The notes under the pieces: model-generated
The model's database searches: none
What the model saw: the letters and a program-made list of their open reading frames with translations, nothing else
Told to the model about the DNA's origin: nothing
Shown: in pieces, positions 3,888-15,254 of the stretch
Layout of the letters: each line of letters starts with the position of its first letter
Position numbering within the stretch: position 1 is the stretch's first letter
Assembly: GCA_021780935.1 (NCBI GenBank)
Contig: JAJXXT010000103.1
Coordinates: forward strand, 1 to 15,254
Length of the DNA: 15,254 nt
Direction: 5' to 3'
DNA from: Pseudomonadota bacterium
GTDB taxonomy: Bacteria > Pseudomonadota > Alphaproteobacteria > Acetobacterales > Acetobacteraceae
Translations under genes and position numbers: made by a program

Positions 3888-6800
3888 CTATGTCGCCGCT
3901 GGCACCGGCGGGTGGAAGCGTCCGGCATGCCAGCCGGCCATTTCCTCGTAGGTGCGGTATTTCTCATCGATCGCGGCCTGCGCGGCGGCGAGCAACTGCG
4001 CCGCTTCCTCCGGCCGGGCCTGCGCCAATGCGCGGTAGCGGATCTCGTTGTAAGCGTAGTCGCGGAACGGGATCGCCGGCCGCGGAGAATCGAGGCGGAA
4101 CGGATTTTCTCCGACCGTCCGCATGGCCGGATTGTAGCGGAACAACGGCCAATACCCGGAGGCCGCGGCCAGATCCTGCTGGCGCAGCCCATGACGCAGA
4201 TCGTAGCCGTGGGCGATGCAGTGCGAATAGGCCAGGATCAGCGACGGTCCGGGATAGGCTTCGGCCTCCCGGAAGGTCAGCAGGGTCTGCTGCGGATTGG
4301 CCCCCATCGCCACCTGCGCGACATAGACGTTGCCATAGGCGATCGCCTGTAGCGCCAGGTCCTTGCGTGCGGTGCGCTTGCCGGCGGCGGCGAAGCGAGC
4401 GATGGCCCCGAGCGGGGTGGCCTTGGACGCCTGACCGCCGGTATTGGAATAGACCTCGGTATCGAGTACCAGCACGTTTACGTCCCGCGCGCTGGCCAGC
4501 ACGTGGTCGAGCCCGCCATAGCCGATGTCGTAGGCCCAGCCGTCGCCGCCGACGATCCAGACGCTGCGGCGAACGAGATGATCGACCACCGACAGCAGAT
4601 CGCGGGCGGCGGGATCGTCGCCGAGCGCAGCGATGCGGGGGAGCAGCGCTTCGAGCCGCGCCCGCTGCGCGCGGATCTCGGATTCTTGGCGCTGCGGCGC
4701 GTCGAGCATGGCGGCGACGTCGTCCGCGCCGAGCCGTGGCGCCAGCGCGGTGGCGAGCCGGCGCGCCAGTTCGACATGCTGATCGACGGCAAGCCGGAAG
4801 CCGAGGCCGAACTCCGCGTTGTCTTCGAACAGGGAATTCGACCAGGCGGGGCCGCGGCCCTCGCCGTTTTTCGCCCATGGCGTGACGGGCAGGTTGCCGC
4901 CATAGATCGAGGAGCAACCGGTAGCGTTGGCGACCATCATGCGATCGCCGAACAACTGCGAGAGGAGCTTCAGATAAGGCGTCTCGCCGCACCCGGCGCA
5001 GGCACCTGAGAAGGCGAACAGCGGCTCGAGGAATTGCACGCCGCGCACGGTGGCCAAATCGACCCGCGCCCGATCGTTGAGCGGCAGATGTTCGAAAAAG
5101 TCGATCCTTGGGCGCTCGGCAATCGCCCGGCCGCCCTTGTGGTGGAGGTTGATCGCCTTCCGGCCCGGTTCGGTCGGACTGAGTGCCGGGCACGCTTCCA
5201 CGCACAGTCCGCAGCCGGTGCAATCTTCCAGATAGAGTTGCAAGGTGAAGGCGACGTCGGGATACCCGCGCGCGTTGATCGGTGCCGAGAGAAATCCATC
5301 GGGTGCGTCCGCCAACCGTCCGGCGTCGTAGTATTTGGCGCGGATCACGCCATGCGGGCAGACGAAGCCGCACTGGCCGCACTGGATACAAACATCCGGC
5401 ACCCATACCGGAACGTCCTCGGCGATGTCGCGCTTCTCGAAGGCCGAGGTTCCCAGCGGGAAGGTCCCGTCCACAGGCATGAGGCTCACTGGGATGTCGT
5501 CGCCGCGCCCGTCCAGCATTGCCGCGGTCACTTGCTGCACGAAGTCGGGCGCGTCGGCCGAAACCGGCGGTGGGCGTTCCCAGGTAGCGGTGACGGCATC
5601 GGGAACCGGCACTTCGGCGAGCCGCGCCAGCGTGCCGTCCACCGCCTGGAAGTTGCGCTGCACGACCTCCTCGCCCTTGGCGCCGTAGCTCTTGCGGATC
5701 GCGTATTTGATCCGCTCGATCGCCTCTGCGCGCGGCAGCACGCCGGCGATCGCGAAGAAGCAGGTCTGCAGGATGGTGTTGGTACGCCCGCGCAGACCGA
5801 CGTCCTGCGCCGTGTGCGAGGCATCGATCACGAACAGCCTTAGGCCCAGCGCCCGGATCCGCGTCTGCATCGCGCGCGGCAGATGGTTCCAGATCAGATC
5901 CGGCCCGAACGGGGTGTTCAGCAGCAGCGTGGCCCCCGGCGCGGCGAGCCGCAGGATGTCGCGCCGCCCGACGAATCCCCAATGGTGGCAGGCGATGAAA
6001 TTGGCCTGGGCGATCAGATAGGGTGCCCGGATCGGCCGAGGGCCGAAGCGCAGGTGGGAAACCGTCTCGGCGCCCGATTTATGGGAATCGTAGACGAAAT
6101 ACCCCTGGGCGTAGCGCGCACCATCCTCGGCCAGGATCTTCACGCTGTTCTTGTTGGCCCCCACCGTGCCGTCGGAGCCGAGGCCATAGAACACCGCCCG
6201 CACCTCGTCCTGCGGCTCGGGCGGGAAATCCGTCGGGACCGACAGGCTGGTGTGCATCACGTCGTCGTCAATGCCGACGGTGAAGCCGCGACGCGGCGCG
6301 GCACCGGCGAGTTCGTCGAACACCGCCCCGGCCATCGCCGGGGTGAAGTCCTTCGACGACAAGCCGAAGCGTCCGCCGATGACCCGCGGCATGATCGCGC
6401 GTGCGCCGTCCGCGAACGCCTCCGCCAGCGTGGTCACCACATCCTGATACAGTGGCTCCCCGGGTGCGCCGGGCTCCTTGGTACGTTCGAGCACCGCGAT
6501 GGAACGCACCGACGCCGGCAAGGCGGCCAGGAAGGCGCCCGTGGCGAACGGCCGGAACAGCCGGATCTGGAGGACTCCGAGCTTCCTGCCGCGCGCGTTC
6601 AGTGCCGCGGCGGTGGCCCGGGCCGTTTCCGCGCCGCTGCCCATCACCACAACAACATGCTCGGCATCGGCGGAACCGGCGTAATCGAACAGTCGGTAGG
6701 CGCGGCCGGTCATCGCGGCGAGCCGGTCCATGGCGTCCTGCATATGGCCGGGCATGGCGGCGTAGAACGGGTTCACGGTCTCGCGCGCCTGGAAGAAGGT

Positions 6801-7466
6801 ATCGGGATTGTGCGCCGTGCCGCGCACCACCGGGTGCTCGGGATCGAGCGCGCGGGCGCGGTGCGCGCGCACCAGATCGTCGTCGATCATGGCGCGGATC
6901 TGGGTATCGCTCAGGAGCTCGAGTGTGTTCACCTCGTGGGAGGTACGGAATCCGTCGAAGAAATGCAGGATCGGCACGCGAGAGGCGAGCGTGGCCGCCT
7001 GCGCGACCAGCGCCAGGTCGTGCGCTTCCTGTACGGAGCCTGAGCAGAGCTGCGCGAAGCCGGCCGACCGCACGGCCATCACATCCGAATGATCGCCGAA
7101 GATCGACAGCGCCTGGGTGGCAACTGACCGAGCCGCGACATGGAACACGGTCGGCGTCAGCTCGCCCGCGATCTTGAACATGTTGGGCAGCATCAGAAGC
7201 AGCCCCTGCGAGGCAGTGAACGTCGTGGTCAGCGCCCCCGATTGCAGCGCCCCGTGCACCGCGCCGGCCGCGCCGCCCTCGCTCTGCATTTCCTGCACCA
7301 CCGGCACGCCGCCCCAGATGTTGCGCAGCCCGGCTGCAGCCCATTCGTCGGCGAGTTCGGCCATGGTGGAGGAGGGGGTGATCGGGAAGATCGCGCAGAC
7401 TTCGTTCACCCGATAGGCGACATGGGCGGCCGCGGTGTTGCCGTCCATCGTGGCACGGTTCGCCAT
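3888..7466 (-). CDS. nifJ: Pyruvate:ferredoxin (flavodoxin) oxidoreductase
   Basis: A full-length (1192 residues) single-chain PFOR that converts pyruvate and CoA to acetyl-CoA and CO2, reducing ferredoxin or flavodoxin in the cytoplasm. In order it has: the pyrimidine-binding domain (TMDGNTAAAHVAYRVNE; FPITPSSTMAE; SQGLLLM), the transketolase C-terminal-like domain, the EKR region, a two-cluster ferredoxin domain (Cys693/696/699/703 and Cys749/752/755/759), and the TPP domain with GDGWAYDIGYGG and TEVYSNTGGQ. Cys823, Cys826, Cys851 and Cys1083 match the ligands of the TPP-proximal cluster in Desulfovibrio PFOR. No key residue appears missing. GGAGGT (7477-7472) lies 5 bases before ATG, and the start is 1 bp past the stop of the preceding flavoprotein gene. 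No nif genes are nearby, and the upstream FNR-like promoter points to a fermentative or low-oxygen role. Confidence 0.97.
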   Translation of the reverse strand: MANRATMDGNTAAAHVAYRVNEVCAIFPITPSSTMAELADEWAAAGLRNIWGGVPVVQEMQSEGGAAGAVHGALQSGALTTTFTASQGLLLMLPNMFKIAGELTPTVFHVAARSVATQALSIFGDHSDVMAVRSAGFAQLCSGSVQEAHDLALVAQAATLASRVPILHFFDGFRTSHEVNTLELLSDTQIRAMIDDDLVRAHRARALDPEHPVVRGTAHNPDTFFQARETVNPFYAAMPGHMQDAMDRLAAMTGRAYRLFDYAGSADAEHVVVVMGSGAETARATAAALNARGRKLGVLQIRLFRPFATGAFLAALPASVRSIAVLERTKEPGAPGEPLYQDVVTTLAEAFADGARAIMPRVIGGRFGLSSKDFTPAMAGAVFDELAGAAPRRGFTVGIDDDVMHTSLSVPTDFPPEPQDEVRAVFYGLGSDGTVGANKNSVKILAEDGARYAQGYFVYDSHKSGAETVSHLRFGPRPIRAPYLIAQANFIACHHWGFVGRRDILRLAAPGATLLLNTPFGPDLIWNHLPRAMQTRIRALGLRLFVIDASHTAQDVGLRGRTNTILQTCFFAIAGVLPRAEAIERIKYAIRKSYGAKGEEVVQRNFQAVDGTLARLAEVPVPDAVTATWERPPPVSADAPDFVQQVTAAMLDGRGDDIPVSLMPVDGTFPLGTSAFEKRDIAEDVPVWVPDVCIQCGQCGFVCPHGVIRAKYYDAGRLADAPDGFLSAPINARGYPDVAFTLQLYLEDCTGCGLCVEACPALSPTEPGRKAINLHHKGGRAIAERPRIDFFEHLPLNDRARVDLATVRGVQFLEPLFAFSGACAGCGETPYLKLLSQLFGDRMMVANATGCSSIYGGNLPVTPWAKNGEGRGPAWSNSLFEDNAEFGLGFRLAVDQHVELARRLATALAPRLGADDVAAMLDAPQRQESEIRAQRARLEALLPRIAALGDDPAARDLLSVVDHLVRRSVWIVGGDGWAYDIGYGGLDHVLASARDVNVLVLDTEVYSNTGGQASKATPLGAIARFAAAGKRTARKDLALQAIAYGNVYVAQVAMGANPQQTLLTFREAEAYPGPSLILAYSHCIAHGYDLRHGLRQQDLAAASGYWPLFRYNPAMRTVGENPFRLDSPRPAIPFRDYAYNEIRYRALAQARPEEAAQLLAAAQAAIDEKYRTYEEMAGWHAGRFHPPVPAAT

Positions 7467-7467
7467 G

Positions 7468-9099
7468 TCAGACCTCCACCGTTTCCGGCATCATCTGGAT
7501 CGCGTGGCATGGGCACTGTTCGAAGCAGGCCGCGCAGCCGGTGCACCGGGCATAGTCGTAGCGGTAGCGGTTTCCTGGGCCGAGCTTGACGATCGCATCC
7601 TCCGGGCAGGCCGCGTAGCAATTGTCGCACTCGAAGCAGACCCCGCAGGACAGGCAGCGTTGCGCCTCCCGCCGTGCCTCGGCTTCGCCGAGGCCGGCCA
7701 TAATCTCGGAAAAATCGTCGCGTGCGGTAACCGGGAGCTCCCGTTGCGCCGCGGGATCGGCGTCGCTGAACACCGGTAGATGCAGCATGGGGAACGTCAC
7801 GACCGGAGTGCGCTCCGTTGTGGTCAGGCTCGTGCCATTCAGCCAGGCACTGATGTGCCGCGCCGCTCGTTTGCCGTGGCCCACCGCGACGGTCACGCTG
7901 CGCGGACTGGGCACCATGTCGCCGCCGGCGAAAATCCCCGGAGCTCCGGTCATCATATCGGCGCCGACGATGACCGTGCCGTCGGAGCGGACCGAGATGC
8001 CGGGGATGCGGCGAAGGAAGTCGCTGTCTGTGTCCTGCCCGAGCGCGAGCACGACCGCATCCGCGCTCAGCGTCTCGATCTCACCGGTCGGCTGCGGACG
8101 GCCGTTGGCGTCAATGCTCATGCGCTCGACCGTCAGCGCATCGGCCGCGATGTCCTTGATGGTCGTGAGCCATCTGATCTTGACGCCTTCGGCCATTGCC
8201 TCGTCGGCCTCGAACGCATGCGCCGGCATATGGGCGCGGTCGCGCCGATAGACGATCAGGGCTTCTTCCGCACCCAGGCGACGGGCGGTGCGCGCTGCGT
8301 CCATCGCCGTGTTGCCGCCACCATACACGACGACGCGCCGGCCGAGCTGCGGCCGTTCCCCGGCGCTCACGTCTCGCAGCAGGCTCACCGCGTCCAGGAC
8401 GCGGGTGGCGTCGCGTGCCGGAATCTCGACGTGGTGCGAGATCTGCGCACCGATCGCGACCAGCACCGCGTCGAACGCGCCAGCCTCGCGCGCAGCGGCC
8501 AAGTCGGTCACCTTGCAGCCAAGCAGGATACGGACCCCAAGACCCTCGATGCGCGCCACCTCGGCGGCCAATTCGTGGCGCGGCAGCCGGTAAGCGGGAA
8601 TGCCGAAATGCAGCATGCCGCCAGCGACCGGCCCCGCCTCGTGGATTTCCACCGAATGTCCAAGCCGGGCGAGATGATAGGCCGCCGAAAGGCCGCACGG
8701 CCCCCCGCCCACCACCAGCACGCGCTTGCCTGAGGCGGCAGCGCTGAGCGGCAGGCGCCAGCCTTCGGCAAGGGCGCGATCGCCGAGGAAGCGTTCCACC
8801 GCGTGAATGCTCACGGCCGCGTCGAGTTCGCCGCGGTTGCAGGCGCTCTCGCAGGGATGATAGCAGACCCGGCCGTGCGTCGCGGGCAACGGGTTGTCGG
8901 CCACCAAGGCCTCCCACGCAGCCCGATAGCGTCCGGCCTGCGCCAGCGTGAGCCAGGCTTGCACATCCTCCCCCGCGGGGCAGGCGTTGTTGCAGGGTGG
9001 CAAGAGATCCCGATAGACCGGTTTCCGGGTACGGATCGGGCCCGCCCCCGGTCCGGCGGTCAGATCGAGGGCCCGCGTCATGTCCGTGCGCTTCAGCAT
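7468..9099 (-). CDS. GltD-like FAD/NAD(P)H oxidoreductase with C-terminal ferredoxin domain
   Basis: A 543-residue flavoprotein resembling the small subunit of glutamate synthase. The N-terminal Fe-S region has Cys36, Cys40, Cys79, Cys83 and Cys87 (CNNACP; CYHPCESAC). The FAD site is VVGGGPCGLSAAYHL (129-143) and the NAD(P)H site VVYGGGNTAMDAAR (257-270). A second FAD-contact segment, GIFAGGDMV, lies at 388-396. Unlike plain GltD it continues into two ferredoxin motifs: Cys488/491/494/498 (preceded by Cys482 and Cys485) and Cys519/522/525/529. No glutamate synthase large subunit is present. Placed directly before nifJ, it probably passes electrons between ferredoxin and NAD(P)H (inference). 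ATG 9099 has GAGG seven bases upstream and overlaps the kinase stop by 7 bp. ATG 9081 is the alternative but has no ribosome binding site. The reading frame upstream of 9099 only shadows the kinase. Confidence 0.88.
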   Translation of the reverse strand: MLKRTDMTRALDLTAGPGAGPIRTRKPVYRDLLPPCNNACPAGEDVQAWLTLAQAGRYRAAWEALVADNPLPATHGRVCYHPCESACNRGELDAAVSIHAVERFLGDRALAEGWRLPLSAAASGKRVLVVGGGPCGLSAAYHLARLGHSVEIHEAGPVAGGMLHFGIPAYRLPRHELAAEVARIEGLGVRILLGCKVTDLAAAREAGAFDAVLVAIGAQISHHVEIPARDATRVLDAVSLLRDVSAGERPQLGRRVVVYGGGNTAMDAARTARRLGAEEALIVYRRDRAHMPAHAFEADEAMAEGVKIRWLTTIKDIAADALTVERMSIDANGRPQPTGEIETLSADAVVLALGQDTDSDFLRRIPGISVRSDGTVIVGADMMTGAPGIFAGGDMVPSPRSVTVAVGHGKRAARHISAWLNGTSLTTTERTPVVTFPMLHLPVFSDADPAAQRELPVTARDDFSEIMAGLGEAEARREAQRCLSCGVCFECDNCYAACPEDAIVKLGPGNRYRYDYARCTGCAACFEQCPCHAIQMMPETVEV

Positions 9100-10031
9100 G
9101 GCCGTGCCTCGCTCAGACGGCGGAAGCCCGCCTCGACATCCGCACGGCGAACCCGCGCGGTCCCAACCCCGGCGATCGCCGCCGCGCCGGCGGCAAGGCC
9201 CCAGTCCAGCGCCTCGATTGGAGTCGCGCCGCGCGCGAGCGCCAGTACCAGGCTGGCGAGGAACGCATCGCCGGCGCCGACCGCGCTGTGCACCGGACCC
9301 GGCAGCGGCGGGCGATGCAGGACCCCCGTTTCGGTGGCCAGGATGGCGCCGCCAGAGCCCAGGGTCACCACCACCATCCGCGCTGCGCCGGCGCGGACCA
9401 GACCAAGCGCCTCGGCCTGCTGTGTCGGCAGATCGGGCAGCGCCCGGCCGACCAGGGACTCGAATTCGCGCAGGCTCGGCTTCATCACGTCGATGCCGTG
9501 GCCGAGGGAGGCGCGCAGCGCCGCGCCGGACGTGTCGAGGACGAAGCGCCGGCCTTGCGCAACGGCCATCCGTGCCGTTTCGGCATAGGCCCAGGCGGGA
9601 ACGCCGCGCGGCAAGCTGCCGCTGGCGACGACGAACTCGGCCGGTTCTTCGGCCAGCGCGGCAAGTGCCGCTCGCCATTCCGCCTCGGTCAGTTCGGGGC
9701 CTTCCGGCACGAAGCGGTATTCTTGTCCGCTCGATGCTTCGCGCACGGTGAAGGAGACCCGGGTGCGTCCGGCGATTGGAACCGGCCGGTACGGGACGCC
9801 GGCCTCGTCTAGCAGCTCGGTGAGAAAGCGGCCGGTTGCGCCGCCGGCGGCGACGACCGCCCGCACCTGCCCGCCCAGGGCATGCACCACGCGGGCGACG
9901 TTGATGCCACCGCCGCCAGGATCGACGTGCTCGTCGAAGGTGCGAATCTTGTGGGTTGGCTGCACGCCCGGCGCGGTGGACGCCAGGTCCACCGCCGGGT
10001 TCAGGGTGAGCGTCGCGATCTGCCCTGCCAC
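9093..10031 (-). CDS. pfkB: PfkB-family 6-phosphofructokinase (Pfk-2 type)
   Basis: A 312-residue ribokinase-fold sugar kinase. It matches the pattern of E. coli Pfk-2 closely: LTLNPAVD at the N-terminus, PGGGGINVARVVHALGG (38-54), AAGGATGRFL (61-70), EYRFVPEGPEL (104-114), ASGSLPRGV (136-144), and the catalytic GAGDAF (252-257) with Asp255 as base. It should phosphorylate fructose-6-phosphate to the 1,6-bisphosphate; 1-phosphofructokinase or tagatose-6-phosphate kinase activity cannot be excluded. The GTG at 10031 is chosen as start because it lies one base after the stop of the BON gene and places the family start immediately after it. The reading frame is open further upstream, but there it only shadows the BON gene. 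It overlaps the next gene by 7 bp, so all three are probably translationally coupled. Confidence 0.82.
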   Translation of the reverse strand: MAGQIATLTLNPAVDLASTAPGVQPTHKIRTFDEHVDPGGGGINVARVVHALGGQVRAVVAAGGATGRFLTELLDEAGVPYRPVPIAGRTRVSFTVREASSGQEYRFVPEGPELTEAEWRAALAALAEEPAEFVVASGSLPRGVPAWAYAETARMAVAQGRRFVLDTSGAALRASLGHGIDVMKPSLREFESLVGRALPDLPTQQAEALGLVRAGAARMVVVTLGSGGAILATETGVLHRPPLPGPVHSAVGAGDAFLASLVLALARGATPIEALDWGLAAGAAAIAGVGTARVRRADVEAGFRRLSEARPC

Positions 10032-10032
10032 G

Positions 10033-10719
10033 TCAGGGACGAACCTGCAGCTGATTCTCGACCGCCGCCACGCCGGCCGCTGACCATGCTGCGTTTTCTG
10101 CGATACGGCGCGCCGCCAGAGTGCGCACGCTGCCAGAAAGCGTGATCCGGGCGCCGCCCCCCGCATCCCCCGGTGCGCTCCCGAGGACGTCCTCCACCGA
10201 GACGGCGATGCGCCTCGCATCAAGGTCGGCATGGCGGGCGAAGGCACGCTGGACCTTCACCACGATATCCTGCGCCGCGACGGCGGGATGGACCAGCAGT
10301 TGGTTGTCCACCGCCACCACCCCCGAGAGCTGCTGGACCCGCGTTTCGGCTTCCTGCCTCTGGTAGTTCCAGTCCAGCACGCCGCTCAGGGTGACCACGC
10401 CCGCTTCGACCCGCACCCGGATGCGTTCATCGGGGATCAGCGTATCCCATTGCAGAACCGCTACCGCCCGCCGGGCGATCTCCACGTCGTCCTGGCGCTG
10501 GCCCGACGTCAGGCGAACCTCGATGTCTTGCGCTAATCCCAGCACGCCGTGCACATGCCAAGTCACCCGCTCGGCAGCCCTCTTCTCAGCGAGGCTCGCG
10601 ACGAAGCCGCCCAGTCTGACGATGCCTTCCTGCACGTCGACGCTGACATGCGTGGCATCGACATGCGGTGCCCATTCGAGTTCCTCGCGCACCGCGTGCT
10701 CTATCGCCCGATCGTCCAT
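10033..10719 (-). CDS. Triple BON-domain protein
   Basis: A 228-residue protein made of three BON (bacterial OsmY and nodulation) domains at about residues 3-71, 77-145 and 150-228. Each has the repeating pattern of an alpha helix, a strand ending in V-x-L-x-G, a helix rich in A/R/E and a terminal V-x-N-x-L or similar strand: IVRLGGFV, VVTLSGVL, ITLSGSVR; then VAVDNQLLV and VAAVENQLQV. There is no signal peptide or membrane segment, so it should be cytoplasmic, unlike periplasmic OsmY. BON domains are thought to bind membranes or ligands in stress responses; its partner is unknown. ATG 10719 follows the ribosome binding site GGGGAGAGG and lies 21 bases after the predicted FNR-type transcription start. 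It is the first gene of the operon with pfkB, the Fe-S flavoprotein, nifJ and the DHOD-like gene. Confidence 0.88.
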   Translation of the reverse strand: MDDRAIEHAVREELEWAPHVDATHVSVDVQEGIVRLGGFVASLAEKRAAERVTWHVHGVLGLAQDIEVRLTSGQRQDDVEIARRAVAVLQWDTLIPDERIRVRVEAGVVTLSGVLDWNYQRQEAETRVQQLSGVVAVDNQLLVHPAVAAQDIVVKVQRAFARHADLDARRIAVSVEDVLGSAPGDAGGGARITLSGSVRTLAARRIAENAAWSAAGVAAVENQLQVRP

Positions 10720-10746
10720 GAGCGCCTCTCCCCGAATGCCACGAAC

Positions 10747-10788
10747 ACGGTAGGCGCTTGTGATGGGATGGTCCTTGACCTGGGTCAA
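10747..10788 (-). promoter_or_regulatory. FNR/FixK-type activated promoter of the PFOR operon
   Basis: TTGACC-tg-GGTCAA at 10775-10788 matches the FNR/FixK/DNR pattern TTGAY-N4-RTCAA used by oxygen- or NO-responsive Crp-family activators. Reading the minus strand, TACCGT occupies 10752-10747. If the site is centred at -41.5, as at class II FNR promoters, this hexamer falls exactly at -12 to -7 and transcription would begin near 10740, 21 bases before the BON start codon. In the opposite direction (toward the cyclase) the equivalent position reads CCCTGG, which is not promoter-like, so the site appears to serve the minus-strand operon. The match is seen in the sequence; regulation is inferred. 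Confidence 0.72.
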
Positions 10789-10912
10789 TCGCAGCCCGGC
10801 GTGGGATGCGCCCTGGCGATGGCTGTCCGCGATCCCCAAACGGCTCGGGCCGCCCGTTGCGCGCGGCGCGGAAACCAGGAAAGACTCCCGTAAACGCTCG
10901 GGAGGAACCGCC

Positions 10913-11701
10913 ATGCCGCGCCGTCTGATCGATATTTCGGTCCCGCTTAAGGCCGGGATCGCCAGCGATCCTGCCCACATGCTGCCCCAGATTGAATATC
11001 TCGACCATCACCAGACCGCGGCTCAAATGGCCGATTATATGGGTGTGCGGGTCGATCAGCTGCCGGACGGCGAGTACGCGGCGGTCGAGAGGGTTCAGGT
11101 CAGCACCCACAACGGCACCCACCTGGATGCACCGTACCATTTCTTCTCGTCGATGAACCATGCGCTCAAGCCAGGCGGAGAGCCATCCTGGAGGATCGAC
11201 GAGGTGCCGCTCGAATGGTGCTTCCAACCCGCGGTCAAGCTGGATTTCCGCCATCTGCCGGACGGCTACGTGGCGACACCGGGAGACGTGGAGGCCGAGC
11301 TCGCGCGCATAGGCCACAGCCTGCGGCCGCTCGAGATCGTGCTGGTTAACACCGCCGCCGGCACGCGCTACGGCGAAGCCGATTACGTCGATCGTGGCTG
11401 CGGCATGGGCAAGGCCGCAACATTGTGGCTGCTGGAGCGCGGCGTCCGCCTGGTGGGAACAGACGCGTGGAGCTGGGACGCGCCGTTCAGCATCACCCGT
11501 CGGCGCGTTGCGGAGACGGGCGACGCGGGTTTGATCTGGGAGGGCCATCGGGCCGGCCGCGAGATCGGCTATTCGCACCTGGAGAAGCTGCACAACCTCG
11601 AGGCGCTGCCGGGGGACGGTTTCGAGGTCGCTTGCTTCCCGGTGAAGGTCCATCGCGCCTCCGCTGGATGGACCCGCGCGGTGGCGATTCTGCCGGGCTA
11701 G
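10913..11701 (+). CDS. Cyclase family protein (kynurenine formamidase-like metal hydrolase)
   Basis: A 262-residue protein of the cyclase family (Pfam Cyclase), metal-dependent hydrolases that include kynurenine formamidase and isatin hydrolase. The metal-binding signature HNGTHLDAPYHF is at residues 66-77 (His66, His70, Asp72, His76), and DISVPL near the N-terminus is the usual first strand. The later segment LVGTDAWSWDAPF (180-192) is typical of the longer members. GGAGGA (10901-10906) is placed well for ATG 10913. It stands alone on the plus strand. The substrate is unknown; no tryptophan- or indole-degradation genes lie nearby. Its TAG stop interlocks with the TAG of the convergent gene in a CTAG palindrome. 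Confidence 0.88.
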   Translation: MPRRLIDISVPLKAGIASDPAHMLPQIEYLDHHQTAAQMADYMGVRVDQLPDGEYAAVERVQVSTHNGTHLDAPYHFFSSMNHALKPGGEPSWRIDEVPLEWCFQPAVKLDFRHLPDGYVATPGDVEAELARIGHSLRPLEIVLVNTAAGTRYGEADYVDRGCGMGKAATLWLLERGVRLVGTDAWSWDAPFSITRRRVAETGDAGLIWEGHRAGREIGYSHLEKLHNLEALPGDGFEVACFPVKVHRASAGWTRAVAILPG

Positions 11702-12671: not shown

Positions 12672-13220
12672 TCAGCGCCCTGTCGTGACCCCCGCGGCGC
12701 GTGCCAGGTAGGCTTTGGCCTGGTCGGCATCGGGGAAGCGCGGCAAAGTGGCACGAAATGCCGCCGTGGGCCCCGTCCGCTCCATAGCGGCCGGCAGCGG
12801 CACCCCAGCCGAAGCGGCAAGCGCGGGCAGCACGACCTGCGCGGCACCGAGGACCATGCTGACGGCAGTCCATGTGGCGGCCAGTTGGGCCGGAAGACCT
12901 GGCGGGATCGGAACGCCGGCCGCGATGGTGATGGCTTCGTTGATCCAGCCGAGGGTCTCCTGAAGCGCGGTCCCGCTCGGCAACGCGCCGGATCGCACCT
13001 TCGTCACGGCAGCGACGATGTCGCCGTCGATCACCCGTAGCTGCGTCACTACCGCCGGGGCGACGACGTCCGCCGGCACTTTCGCGAGTGCATTCCCGAG
13101 CGCGGTGCCGATGTTGGCGATGTCCGTCAGGATCTGGCTCGGCGTCTGGCCCGCGCAACCGGAGAGGCCCAGCGGCACGGCCGATACGGCAATGAGCAGG
13201 TGGCGTCGATTGAGGATCAT
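12672..13220 (-). CDS. Putative lipoprotein in phage lysis region
   Basis: A 182-residue protein with a lipoprotein signal peptide: Arg5-Arg6, a hydrophobic core (residues 8-18) and the lipobox Leu19-Ser20-Gly21-Cys22, followed by a mature part rich in Ala, Val, Thr and Leu helices. The paired arginines could also suggest Tat export. No enzyme motif is visible. Its ATG overlaps the stop of the holin-like gene by 4 bp (ATGA), so the two are coupled. In phage lysis cassettes an outer-membrane lipoprotein can act as a spanin partner, but this one is long and no inner-membrane spanin was recognised, so that role is only a possibility. Confidence 0.75.
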   Translation of the reverse strand: MILNRRHLLIAVSAVPLGLSGCAGQTPSQILTDIANIGTALGNALAKVPADVVAPAVVTQLRVIDGDIVAAVTKVRSGALPSGTALQETLGWINEAITIAAGVPIPPGLPAQLAATWTAVSMVLGAAQVVLPALAASAGVPLPAAMERTGPTAAFRATLPRFPDADQAKAYLARAAGVTTGR

Positions 13221-13462
13221 GGCGTTGTCGCCTTCGGCGCGACCGCCTCGGCCGGAGTCTGCGTCGTGGGTCGGGCGTTCCCAGGCCCGTGGGTGATCAG
13301 CAAGTGCACCATCGGCGCGATCAGCGTGACCAAAGCAGCGGCGACATCCGACGGGAGTGGCGTGTGGAACAGCGAAAGGATCCAGACCATGACGACCACA
13401 GCAGATCCCGCAGCCCCGCTGCTGGCCGCGCCGCTGGCAACCGAGCCTTGTGAGGTATTCAT
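13217..13462 (-). CDS. Small holin-like membrane protein
   Basis: An 81-residue protein with two hydrophobic segments (about 19-33 and 38-57) joined by a short turn with Pro35, Pro37 and Asp39, a small polar N-terminus and a polar Pro/Thr/Ala-rich C-terminal tail. Size, topology and position between an endolysin and a lipoprotein are what is expected of a class II holin, which would permeabilise the inner membrane to release the endolysin. GGAGAG lies just before ATG 13462. It overlaps the lipoprotein start by 4 bp. No sequence signature of a named holin family is recognised, so the holin call depends on context. Confidence 0.65.
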   Translation of the reverse strand: MNTSQGSVASGAASSGAAGSAVVVMVWILSLFHTPLPSDVAAALVTLIAPMVHLLITHGPGNARPTTQTPAEAVAPKATTP

Positions 13463-13698
13463 TGCTCTCTCCGTTTGGGGATATGGGCGGCCATGGGACG
13501 GGTAGGCCGCCGAGACCGGATATTTCTGGATACGACATCGTCCCGACACGATAATAGGAATGTTACGTGCATCGGGGTCCGGTGCGTTTATAGATTCGTA
13601 GGAGGTCGAAGACCTGCATGGATCGGGAGCTGATGGCAGGATTGCAACCGGGTCCGATGGCGCGCGACATCGGCTCGCCAGGAGCTTGGCGCGCGCCG
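13463..13698. other. AT-richer intergenic region between endolysin and holin-like genes
   Basis: These 236 bases hold no convincing gene. They include TATTAT- and TATAAA-like hexamers on the minus strand (around 13550-13595), which might be -10 elements for the holin and lipoprotein genes, but no well-spaced -35 box was found. A small inverted repeat AGGTC-GAA-GACCT lies at 13603-13615. The region is less GC-rich than its surroundings. Confidence 0.35.
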
Positions 13699-14235
13699 TC
13701 AATCGGCGATCGTGAGCGACCGGTAGAGCAGCCTGCACAGCCGGCGCGCCCAGCCGAGGCCAAACCTCGTCCAGGTCGGCAACTCGGCCATGAATGCCAA
13801 GCGAAGCGCCAGGAACTCGATGCACATTCCGGTCAGATCCTCCGGCTGCACCGCTGCTGAGGCGACCGCAGCCAGCGTTGCAGGACCAATCACGCCATCG
13901 GGGGTGACCTTCGCGGCTTTTTGCAGCCAGGTTGTCGCTCGGAAGATACCGTTGTTCACTGCCGCATCGAACGCCAGCAGCGCAAGCCGCGGCGGCAGAC
14001 GATCAGCGTAGAGCCTGTCCCAGTAGTCGCGTTTGTAGAGCGCGCGGGCTGCCTGGATCGTCAACTCCGCGATGTCGATATTGGGATAGGCAGCCGCGCT
14101 GATACCAAACTTGGTGCCCCGGCAGATGCCACAACCCGGGCTGCCGCCGGTCCAGTTGCCGGGGTCCGCCGGATCCTCGGTGAAGCCACCCTCCGCTCCA
14201 ACAACGATATCAAAACAGTCATCGAACGTGTTCAC
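13699..14235 (-). CDS. GH108-type phage endolysin
   Basis: A 178-residue peptidoglycan hydrolase of the glycoside hydrolase 108 class (N-acetylmuramidase), with a C-terminal peptidoglycan-binding-like part. The catalytic glutamate is Glu15 in GAEGGFTEDPADPGNWTGG, followed by GTKFGIS (40-46), FDAAVNNG (89-96), and DGVIGPAT (113-120). The length is normal for the family. The GTG at 14235 is chosen because it lies just past the upstream gene's stop and starts directly at the family N-terminus. ATG 14283 would add 16 residues inside the neighbour, and neither start has a strong ribosome binding site. There is no signal peptide, so release would need the holin. Cys35 and Cys38, in the loop after the catalytic region, stand out as a close pair. 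Confidence 0.9.
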   Translation of the reverse strand: MNTFDDCFDIVVGAEGGFTEDPADPGNWTGGSPGCGICRGTKFGISAAAYPNIDIAELTIQAARALYKRDYWDRLYADRLPPRLALLAFDAAVNNGIFRATTWLQKAAKVTPDGVIGPATLAAVASAAVQPEDLTGMCIEFLALRLAFMAELPTWTRFGLGWARRLCRLLYRSLTIAD

Positions 14236-14248
14236 GGCTCGGCGATGA

Positions 14249-14590
14249 TTACTTGGCGTGGGTGATGAGCGTGCTCCAGCCATAGGCGATCAAGGCCAGC
14301 ATCGCTGCGGTGAGCATGCTCTTCCAGAACGCCCAGTCCTCGCGGCTCACGAATTTGTCCGTGACGTCGCGCAGACTGTTCCGGAACGTTGCTCCTTGCG
14401 CATCGAGTGCGGCGCTGAAGCGGTCCGCGAGCGCGCGTAAGCTCGCCTCGAGCTCGGTGTCGCGGTTGGACAGCCGCTCCACTGACGTCACGACCTGGCG
14501 CATCTGTTCCTCGAGACGCGCCAGGCGCTCGACAAGTTCGTCGGCGAAAGAAATCGGCGGCATCGCCTTCACGGACTGATTTTGGCGCAT
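14249..14590 (-). CDS. Coiled-coil protein with C-terminal membrane anchor
   Basis: A 113-residue protein. Residues about 17-78 are highly charged with heptad-like spacing (LVERLARLEEQMRQVV and onward) and should form a coiled coil. A hydrophobic segment at about 88-110 (WKSMLTAAMLALIAYGW) anchors it in the inner membrane with a short tail. This architecture resembles XhlA/Rz-like lysis accessories or small tail-module proteins, but no family is certain. ATG 14590 has AAGG nine bases upstream; Met10 is a possible later start. It ends 13 bp before the endolysin start, and that fits a lysis cassette. Confidence 0.7.
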   Translation of the reverse strand: MRQNQSVKAMPPISFADELVERLARLEEQMRQVVTSVERLSNRDTELEASLRALADRFSAALDAQGATFRNSLRDVTDKFVSREDWAFWKSMLTAAMLALIAYGWSTLITHAK

Positions 14591-14633
14591 GGCGGAAGTA
14601 CCTTCGAAAGGGAATGCATGTCGGGTGCGTTGG

Positions 14634-15254
14634 TCAAGGGGTATCGCTCAGCGCGATCGGGGCCGCGGTCGCTGCCAGTGGGTAATCGATCGTCCAAGCG
14701 CTGCCGAGATCGCCTGCGATCGCCCATCCCGGCGGCATCGGCAGCGAGGAAAAATTGTCGGTCACCGCGTTGCCGCGGCCGATCGTACCGGTTCCATAGG
14801 GATAATAGAGCAAGCATGCGCTGCTGGAATTGACGAGCGCGCGGCCCAGGGTGATCTGCAGATGGCTTGCGTCCACACGAACGCAGGCGGTCGCTGCGAC
14901 AACCGGTCCCGGGCTGATGACAGATCCACCGTCCATCACCGCGAATCCGGCGCCCTGGGCTGCCTGCAACGGAACCCGCAGATCCGTGCCAGCGTCATGC
15001 TGGATGGTCAACACGATCGTCGCCGGTCGCTGATGGTAGGCGTGCACGATCCGCGGGCCACCAGAAGCCGGCAGCGCGGGGGGGATGCTGGTCAGACTGT
15101 CGCCGCGTCCGGTTGCTAGGATGGCGCGCGCGGCCGGGGCCGCAGCAAGGTGGGCAAAGCGCTGGTTGTCCGGGCCGTCCCGATGGGCGCTGTCGCCGCC
15201 GGAGGCCAGACCAGTGGTCGGATCCCATACCGCTCCCCGCGGATTGCTGTCGCT
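14634..15254 (-). CDS. C-terminal part of a phage structural or esterase-like protein (runs off the window)
   Basis: The frame is open from the right edge to the stop at 14634, about 206 residues, so the beginning of the gene lies outside the window; the GTG at 15047 is internal. The sequence is rich in Gly, Ala, Asp and Thr, with [20 protein letters not shown] near the end. This suggests a beta-rich C-terminal domain such as those of phage tail or SGNH-type carbohydrate esterase proteins. The esterase idea rests on general resemblance only and no catalytic motif is in view. It is followed after 43 bp by the coiled-coil gene, in the same direction as the lysis genes. Confidence 0.6.

What the first reader, a model, noticed from the sequence alone, without database searches (positions are those of the whole stretch)
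10747..10788. FNR-type palindrome with a class II promoter geometry drives the PFOR operon
Seen: TTGACC-tg-GGTCAA and, on the minus strand, TACCGT placed exactly where the -10 box of a class II site centred at -41.5 should be; the first gene's ATG follows 21 bases after the inferred start. Known: FNR, FixK and DNR bind TTGAY-N4-RTCAA. Inference: the BON-pfkB-flavoprotein-nifJ-DHOD operon is induced under low oxygen or by NO.
Basis: partly seen in the sequence, partly recalled or inferred. Interest (0 to 1): 0.72.

Follow-up and report, generated by a model that had tools for sequence, protein, structure and literature searches.

The report
Low-oxygen switch before PFOR operon
A short DNA palindrome in front of a pyruvate-oxidising gene cluster looks like a genuine docking site for a low-oxygen gene activator of the FNR/FixK kind, kept at the same spacing in related bacteria, so the cluster is probably switched on when oxygen runs out; this kind of switch is well known.

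Summary
TTGACCTGGGTCAA lies at 10775-10788. On the minus strand TACCGT (10752-10747) begins 29.5 nt from its centre, as in a class II promoter at -41.5; the BON ATG is at 10719.

Presence alone proves little (74 of 200 shuffles hold a match at <=1 mismatch). Comparison does. G001, the closest relative, keeps site and TACCGT. Of 24 loci with flavoprotein >=70% alike, 20 carry a strict site before operon head or flavoprotein, 2 one with a mismatch, 1 misses, 1 is cut off. Nine more distant loci: 1 strict, 3 one mismatch, 5 none. A -10-like score peaks at exactly 29.5 nt (0 of 5000 shuffles), also at other sites of G001, which has 44 such sites near hemN, ccoNO and ubiU, and fixLJ-fixK.

In Rhodobacter capsulatus the flavoprotein gene that stands with nifJ and pyrD1 is listed as directly activated by FnrL, so control of this module by FNR is not new.

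Best reading: low-oxygen class II promoter, FixK or FNR driven. NO control is unsupported; expression is untested. New member of a known kind.

The parts
10775..10788 (-). FNR/FixK-type operator, TTGACCCAGGTCAA on the minus strand (TTGACCTGGGTCAA on plus)
   Evidence: TTGATCCAGGTCAA at the same place in L001; strict or one-mismatch sites at operon heads of most close relatives
10747..10752 (-). Inferred -10 hexamer TACCGT, first base 29.5 nt from the operator centre (class II, -41.5)
   Evidence: kept in L001; score peak at exactly 29.5 nt in 22 operon-head sites and in 58 oriented site-gene pairs of G001
10740..10740 (-). Inferred transcription start
   Evidence: Inference from class II geometry; not mapped
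10033..10719 (-). First gene: protein of three BON domains (228 aa)
   Evidence: PF04972, 139 bits, 3 stretches
9093..10031 (-). pfkB: 1-PFK-type hexose kinase (start placed by comparison with L001)
   Evidence: TIGR03168 above cut-off; L001 gene starts at 1784
7468..9099 (-). NAD(P)-binding Fe-S flavoprotein, PRK12771 subfamily (start placed by comparison with L001)
   Evidence: NF009410, 741 bits against cut-off 516
3888..7466 (-). nifJ: pyruvate:ferredoxin (flavodoxin) oxidoreductase
   Evidence: TIGR02176, 1675 bits
2863..3879 (-). Dihydroorotate-dehydrogenase-like protein, PRK07565 subfamily
   Evidence: NF005741, 380 bits against cut-off 303

Best explanation
The palindrome is a functional operator of an FNR/FixK-type activator. 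A dimer binds TTGAC-N4-GTCAA centred at -41.5, overlapping the -35 region, and helps RNA polymerase to a weak -10 (TACCGT) that has no good -35 of its own; transcription runs leftwards through BON-pfkB-flavoprotein-PFOR-DHOD-like as one operon. In this lineage the signal most likely runs oxygen shortage -> FixLJ -> FixK -> operator (about 0.55), with a directly oxygen-sensing FNR as the main alternative (0.35). Under low oxygen the cell would then make PFOR, an oxygen-sensitive enzyme type that feeds ferredoxin or flavodoxin, with the flavoprotein as its likely NAD(P)H partner. Shown: site, spacing, conservation, regulon context, fixLJ-fixK in the closest relative. Inferred: binding, start site, oxygen response in this organism, electron path.
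For: Closest relative L001/G001: promoter 91% alike over 192 bp, site changed only C to T within the consensus, TACCGT unchanged. Strict sites before operon head or flavoprotein in 20 of 24 loci with flavoprotein >=70% alike. 15 of 33 loci have a strict site within 300 bp before the aligned flavoprotein start, 0.29 expected from the rest of the same loci; 0 of 32 before the internal PFOR gene. Mean T1/A2/T6 score 1.82 of 3 at 29.5 nt against 0.53 at the other 39 offsets, 0 of 5000 shuffles; 1.76 without the window; independent peak at 29.5 nt in 58 G001 site-gene pairs other than the PFOR operon, 0 of 3000 shuffles. G001 has 44 sites with spacing 4 and 13 for the other nine spacings together; neighbours include hemN with two sites, ccoNO, ubiU (behind another ORF), USP, BON, CBS, OmpW. 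FixK-like proteins, best solved match FixK2 4i2o, one beside FixJ (over its curated cut-off) and a FixL-like kinase. In R. capsulatus RCC01729 is listed as activated (+) by FnrL with ATGATCCAAGTCAT (PMC4634722, passages), and another paper lists rcc_01729, nifJ and pyrD1 together under one RegA peak (PMC5359404, passages).
Against: The genome of the window itself is not held, so its regulators were not seen. The strict pattern alone is not rare enough. TACCGT matches TATAAT at 3 of 6 bases. The full T-A-n3-T stands at 29.5 nt in only 6 of 22 operon-head sites (8 of 27 with near-duplicates), at 28.5 in 2 of 22; some lack it, such as GGATTG in L089. L069 has no site within 300 bp (strict at 876.5 bp, one mismatch at 425.5). 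Five of nine loci with flavoprotein below 70% show none, Phenylobacterium none. Loci are related, so Poisson and shuffle figures overstate independence; flanks of L064 and L062 are 0.51 alike, so not all promoters are unrelated. Some G001 sites lie inside genes, as in IGPS and a CNNM protein. In R. capsulatus the module is also bound and repressed by RegA, so a second redox regulator may act here too.
Confidence: 0.87

Rival explanations
1. Same promoter, but the activator is a true Fe-S cluster FNR (FnrN/FnrL) that senses oxygen directly.
For: Five of the six genomes searched (G068, G148, G007, G011, G073) have a Crp/Fnr protein with an N-terminal C-x2-C-x7-C triad and an ETVSR or ETISR helix. 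FnrL is the listed activator of RCC01729 in R. capsulatus. Tsoy et al. (PMC4999443, passages) report only FnrN in the Rhodospirillales they analysed, and very similar sites for FnrN and FixK.
Against: In G001, the closest relative, the best matches to two such FNR proteins are the FixK-like ones (42% and 31% alike at best); of its nine PF13545 hits I read five, and the only one with the Cys triad has a VHVSR helix. G001 is a draft, so absence is weak.
Confidence: 0.35
2. Same site, but a nitric-oxide regulator of the DNR/NnrR type uses it.
For: DNR and NnrR bind similar half-sites (recalled). G001 has FtrB/DNR-like Crp proteins, one with a strict site 84.5 bp before its start.
Against: No denitrification or NO-detoxification family was seen among the 40 site neighbours sent to Pfam (not all neighbours were sent), whereas hemN, ccoNO and ubiU were.
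Confidence: 0.07
3. The palindrome serves the divergent cyclase gene (plus strand, ATG assumed at 10913; an in-frame GTG lies at 10760) rather than the PFOR operon.
For: It lies in the shared region, about 131 bp before that ATG.
Against: The plus-strand class II position reads CCCTGG (L001 in that orientation; same in the window). Relatives with other genes there keep the site before the operon.
Confidence: 0.04
4. Chance palindrome without function.
For: A match at <=1 mismatch arises in 74 of 200 shuffles of the window.
Against: Conservation, operon-head placement, exact spacing and genome-wide enrichment.
Confidence: 0.03

Closest known systems
FnrL control of RCC01729 (with nifJ, pyrD1) in Rhodobacter capsulatus
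   Same: The table of Kumka and Bauer (PMC4634722, passages) lists RCC01729 'oxidoreductase' as + with FnrL sequence ATGATCCAAGTCAT, under genes unique to R. capsulatus; Schindel and Bauer (PMC5359404, passages) list rcc_01729, nifJ and pyrD1 together under one RegA peak. So the flavoprotein-PFOR-DHOD-like module under an FNR-type activator is known.
   Different: There the site is imperfect and RegA represses the genes; no BON, pfkB or PEP synthase in the passages read; distance to the start not seen. That RCC01729 is the same flavoprotein family rests on its name and neighbours, not on a comparison made here.
FixLJ-FixK2 regulon of Bradyrhizobium diazoefficiens
   Same: Same operator class; a table on microoxia (columns only partly seen) lists PEP synthase (blr4655), a 1-phosphofructokinase-family kinase (blr4659), USP, CBS and host-attachment proteins (passages of PMC6515984), gene kinds found with sites in G001. 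A FixK box 40.5 bp from a mapped start is reported for nosR (passages of PMC5582078).
   Different: No word beginning with 'pyruvate' in that main text, so no PFOR seen there.
Low-oxygen-activated (lxa) locus of Burkholderia cenocepacia
   Same: USPs, a BON protein and a phosphofructokinase rise together in later isolates; a FixK homologue is proposed as regulator (passages of PMC6127331).
   Different: No PFOR named in the passages read; 'FNR' and 'motif' have 0 hits there.
FnrN/FixK regulons of Alphaproteobacteria (Tsoy et al. 2016)
   Same: Consensus TTGANCNNGATCAANG; targets cco, hemN, fixK (passages of PMC4999443).
   Different: nifJ has 0 hits in that text; Rhodospirillales there are said to have only FnrN.
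Class II FNR promoters (fnr1 of Herbaspirillum)
   Same: Site centred at -42, class II (passages of PMC5934665).
   Different: Here starts are inferred, not mapped.

Membership tests
FNR/FixK-type operator | TTGAY-N4-RTCAA dyad | tested here: met
   Strict match at 10775-10788; consensus of FnrN/FixK in PMC4999443
FNR/FixK-type operator | Conserved before the same operon in relatives | tested here: met
   24 close loci: 20 strict, 2 one mismatch, 1 miss, 1 cut off; 9 distant: 1 strict, 3 one mismatch, 5 none
Class II activator-dependent promoter | -10 placed for a site centred at -41.5, without a good -35 | tested here: met
   Score peak at 29.5 nt, though full T-A-n3-T in 6 of 22 only; no sigma-70 pair of hexamers in 10500-11000
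Class II activator-dependent promoter | Mapped transcription start | not testable with these tools
   Needs RNA
FixLJ-FixK regulon | fixL, fixJ and fixK present | tested here: inconclusive
   Side by side in closest relative G001: FixJ over cut-off, FixL-like and FixK-like under the curated cut-offs; own genome not held
FixLJ-FixK regulon | Induction by low oxygen that depends on FixK | not testable with these tools
   Needs expression data
Fe-S FNR regulon | Regulator with Cys cluster ligands and E-x-x-S-R helix | tested here: inconclusive
   Seen in 5 of 6 genomes searched (G068, G148, G007, G011, G073), not in draft G001
CRP-cAMP operator | TGTGA-N6-TCACA | tested here: not met
   Sequence read has TTGAC half-sites; CRP consensus recalled

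The most novel reading that the evidence does not exclude
In one part of this alphaproteobacterial family the PFOR-flavoprotein module is a standing member of the low-oxygen FixK/FNR regulon, and the class II operator has repeatedly been gained anew or moved as the operon got a different first gene (BON, PEP synthase or the flavoprotein), at the same 29.5-nt spacing although most of these promoters share nothing else.
Probability: 0.55. Interest if true: 0.4.

Novelty: new member of a known kind. Interest (0 to 1): 0.3.

Why it matters
It gives a testable oxygen signal to a PFOR operon in little-studied relatives known largely from draft genomes, extends what is listed for FnrL in Rhodobacter to another group of Alphaproteobacteria with another operon make-up, and offers a case of one operator being placed before different operon heads. 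Nothing in it changes what is known about FNR/FixK promoters themselves.

Tried and rejected
Whole genome of the window: not held, so G001 (BON 96%, PFOR 97% alike) stood in for it. Consensus promoter scan of 10500-11000 found no sigma-70 pair. Plasmid search with 9900-11100 matched only coding parts in 3 records, none over the promoter. Beyond the family, 3 plasmid records read: Methylovirgula pHY1 has a strict site 251.5 bp before the flavoprotein; Phenylobacterium none at <=1 mismatch in the stretch examined; Azospirillum B510, with a different PFOR neighbourhood, one-mismatch sites at 414.5 and 216.5 bp. NO control and service of the cyclase gene were set low (see rivals). Literature: eight searches of an open-access library; I first took them as showing no report of FNR control of PFOR, but a paper listed, once opened, lists RCC01729 as an FnrL target, so the claim of newness was dropped. 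Most papers in the listings were not opened.

Dropped rows: the 27 operon-head sites were cut to 22 for by leaving out near-duplicates L001, L063, L086, L087, L011; L069, L076-L080, L082, L083, L085 (no strict site at the head), L084 and L090 (head missing) could not enter, nor the second site of L088's PEP synthase head and of L091. Of the neighbours of the 44 G001 sites, 40 proteins went to Pfam. The ORF caller is crude and some starts are wrong. One-mismatch sites were sought within 700 bp of the flavoprotein, within 450 bp of PEP synthase heads and, for four distant loci, within 400 bp of the gene ahead; 42 such sites in 427,232 bases give 0.03 per 300 bp. One search was a badly chosen query and told nothing. 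The cyclase query was translated one base out of frame, with stops in it; its rows were not used.

Full report
Observation. The sequence holds TTGACCTGGGTCAA at 10775-10788. Reading the minus strand from its centre (10781.5), the hexamer TACCGT (10752-10747) starts at 29.5 nt, where the -10 of a class II promoter belongs; the inferred start is 10740 and the BON ATG begins at 10719. The window has no other match to TTGAYNNNNRTCAA at 0 or 1 mismatch; shuffled windows hold a mean of 0.43 and 74 of 200 have at least one. The palindrome by itself is not proof.

Genes. Families confirm the operon: three-BON protein, 1-PFK-type hexose kinase, PRK12771-type Fe-S flavoprotein, PFOR and a PRK07565-type dihydroorotate-dehydrogenase-like protein. 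The genes are nearly back to back, so one transcript is likely. The divergent neighbour is a cyclase-family gene.

Closest relative. One scan of genome contigs with the BON protein gave 11 loci. In L001 (MAG SKS5.bin64, here G001) the region between the genes is 91% alike over 192 bp, the palindrome is TTGATCCAGGTCAA, a change inside the consensus, and TACCGT is unchanged while bases just after it differ.

Wider relatives. Of 150 genomes drawn from the family of G001, 27 have the flavoprotein at E <= 1e-80. The tool does not name the family; titles such as 'Acetobacteraceae bacterium' and 'Rhodospirillales bacterium' among the loci suggest Acetobacteraceae. I read 32 neighbourhoods, L060-L091: 26 from 25 of these 27 genomes (G125 twice) and 6 from G002, G005, G006, G007, G008 and G011; G001 is L001, and G154 (40% alike) was not fetched. 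L084 lacks the start of the flavoprotein; with window and L001 that leaves 33 loci. With flavoprotein >=70% alike there are 24: 20 have a strict site before the operon head or the flavoprotein (window, L001, L060-L063, L065-L068, L070-L075, L087-L089, L091; in L066 it is 269.5 bp before the flavoprotein, in L067 before a gene further up whose membership of the operon is assumed), 2 have a site with one mismatch (L064, L086), L069 has none within 300 bp, and L090 is cut off by the contig end. With flavoprotein below 70% there are 9: L081 strict at 213.5 bp; L077 and L085 one mismatch; L076 one mismatch before the gene ahead of the flavoprotein; L078, L079, L080, L082 and L083 none found. So the link is a trait of one part of the family, not of the operon everywhere.

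Three kinds of head. In the window and L001 the first gene is BON. In L060, L061, L064, L086, L088 and L091 it is a PEP synthase (named by family in L061 and L088; by like N-termini in the others), and so in L003, L004 and L011, which have PEP synthase, BON and pfkB without PFOR in the stretch held. In L062, L065, L068, L070-L075 and others the site stands before the flavoprotein itself. Over these 9 PEP synthase heads 7 sites are strict and 2 have one mismatch. G001 has a PEP-synthase-like gene elsewhere with its own site and TAGGCT at 29.5 nt.

Numbers. Strict sites fall within 300 bp before the aligned flavoprotein start in 15 of 33 loci, against 0.29 expected from the rest of these loci (Poisson 4e-21, overstated since loci are related), and in 0 of 32 before the internal PFOR gene. 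For the -10, a score of T1, A2 and T6 (0 to 3) was taken at 40 offsets. In 22 operon-head sites (27 less 5 near-duplicates) it averages 1.82 at 29.5 nt and 0.53 elsewhere; none of 5000 shuffles reached 1.82 at any offset (largest 1.18); without the window it is 1.76. The full T-A-n3-T is met at 29.5 nt in 6 of 22 and at 28.5 nt in 2 of 22; L062 has TAGGCT at 28.5, L089 has nothing good. Flanks of sites before different heads have mean identities of 0.28-0.31 against 0.28 for shuffles, so the spacing is mostly not just inherited with the promoter; an exception is L062 against L064 (0.51).

Regulon. G001 has 44 strict sites; spacings 0-9 together give 57, so the other nine spacings share 13; the pattern read backwards gives 2. 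In 58 oriented site-gene pairs of G001 without the PFOR operon (both orientations of a site may count) the -10 score again peaks at 29.5 nt (1.03; 0 of 3000 shuffles). Forty neighbouring proteins were scanned (six of them named further, with ccoO). hemN (two sites), ccoN with ccoO, ubiU (about 820 bp from the site, behind another ORF), a TtrB-like Fe-S protein (under its cut-off; a near-twin locus with paired sites too), USP, BON, CBS, CBS-BON, host-attachment protein, OmpW, the PEP-synthase-like gene, S30AE, a proton P-ATPase and a Crp-family gene fit a low-oxygen regulon; xanthine-dehydrogenase-like, thiolase, lyase, amidohydrolase, tRNA synthetase, transporter genes and several proteins without family say little; sites inside IGPS and a CNNM gene look like chance.

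Regulator. G001 has two FixK-like proteins with ETVCR or ETICR helices and no N-terminal Cys cluster; the one at C480 matches FixK2 (4i2o, 155 bits) best among solved structures and stands divergent from a FixJ (276 bits, cut-off 255) and a FixL-like kinase (441 bits, under the cut-off of 850). Of nine PF13545 hits in G001 I read five. The other five genomes searched (G068, G148, G007, G011, G073) have a protein with the Cys triad and an E-x-x-S-R helix; searching with two of these gave no closer relative in G001 than its FixK-like proteins. The site does not tell them apart, as Tsoy et al. also note (PMC4999443, passages). I put FixK at 0.55 and Fe-S FNR at 0.35.

Mechanism and limits. Oxygen loss would activate FixL, FixJ would raise FixK, and FixK at -41.5 would lift a weak promoter. 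PFOR then takes over pyruvate oxidation, and the flavoprotein probably passes electrons between ferredoxin and NAD(P)H; that last step rests on family knowledge. No RNA, binding or oxygen test was available here for this organism.

Known before. In R. capsulatus, RCC01729 is listed as activated by FnrL with the sequence ATGATCCAAGTCAT (PMC4634722, passages), and rcc_01729, nifJ and pyrD1 stand together under one RegA peak, repressed (PMC5359404, passages). So FNR control of this module has been reported; I met this only on checking a paper listed. PEP synthase, a phosphofructokinase-family kinase, USP and CBS proteins appear in a microoxia table of Bradyrhizobium (PMC6515984, passages), and a BON protein, USPs and a phosphofructokinase in the lxa locus of Burkholderia (PMC6127331, passages). 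What may be new is the joining of both sets in one operon under a conserved, repeatedly placed class II operator. New member of a known kind.

Noticed in passing
L120 (G001:C477:3577-3804 and around): A Crp/Fnr protein with FNR-like cysteines (C-x2-C-x7-C and a later Cys) but a VHVSR recognition helix in place of E-x-x-S-R; it may sense oxygen yet read a different operator.
   Followed up: partly
L163 and L165 (G001:C23 and C36): Two near-twin loci of a TtrB-like Fe-S protein, each with a pair of strict sites about 106-115 bp apart facing divergent genes.
   Followed up: partly
window 12672-15254: Right end looks phage-like: a protein weakly like a holin-associated muramidase at 13699-14283 and small neighbours without families, a possible prophage edge.
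   Followed up: no
window 10885-10904, minus strand: A short stem-loop with a T-rich tail just before the cyclase ATG, pointing towards the BON promoter; it may shield it from read-through, or be chance (0.2 expected).
   Followed up: no
L055 (G133:C1:72440-74056): The flavoprotein relative in this genome shows one in-frame TAA in the search; not looked at further.
   Followed up: no
L168 (G001:C103): An FtrB/DNR-like Crp gene has a strict site 84.5 bp before its start, hinting at a cascade below FixK.
   Followed up: partly
L178 and L177 (plasmids of Methylovirgula sp. HY1 and Phenylobacterium zucineum): The flavoprotein-PFOR-DHOD-like module sits on plasmids; in Methylovirgula a strict site lies 251.5 bp upstream, in Phenylobacterium it follows an alcohol dehydrogenase gene without a site.
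   Followed up: partly
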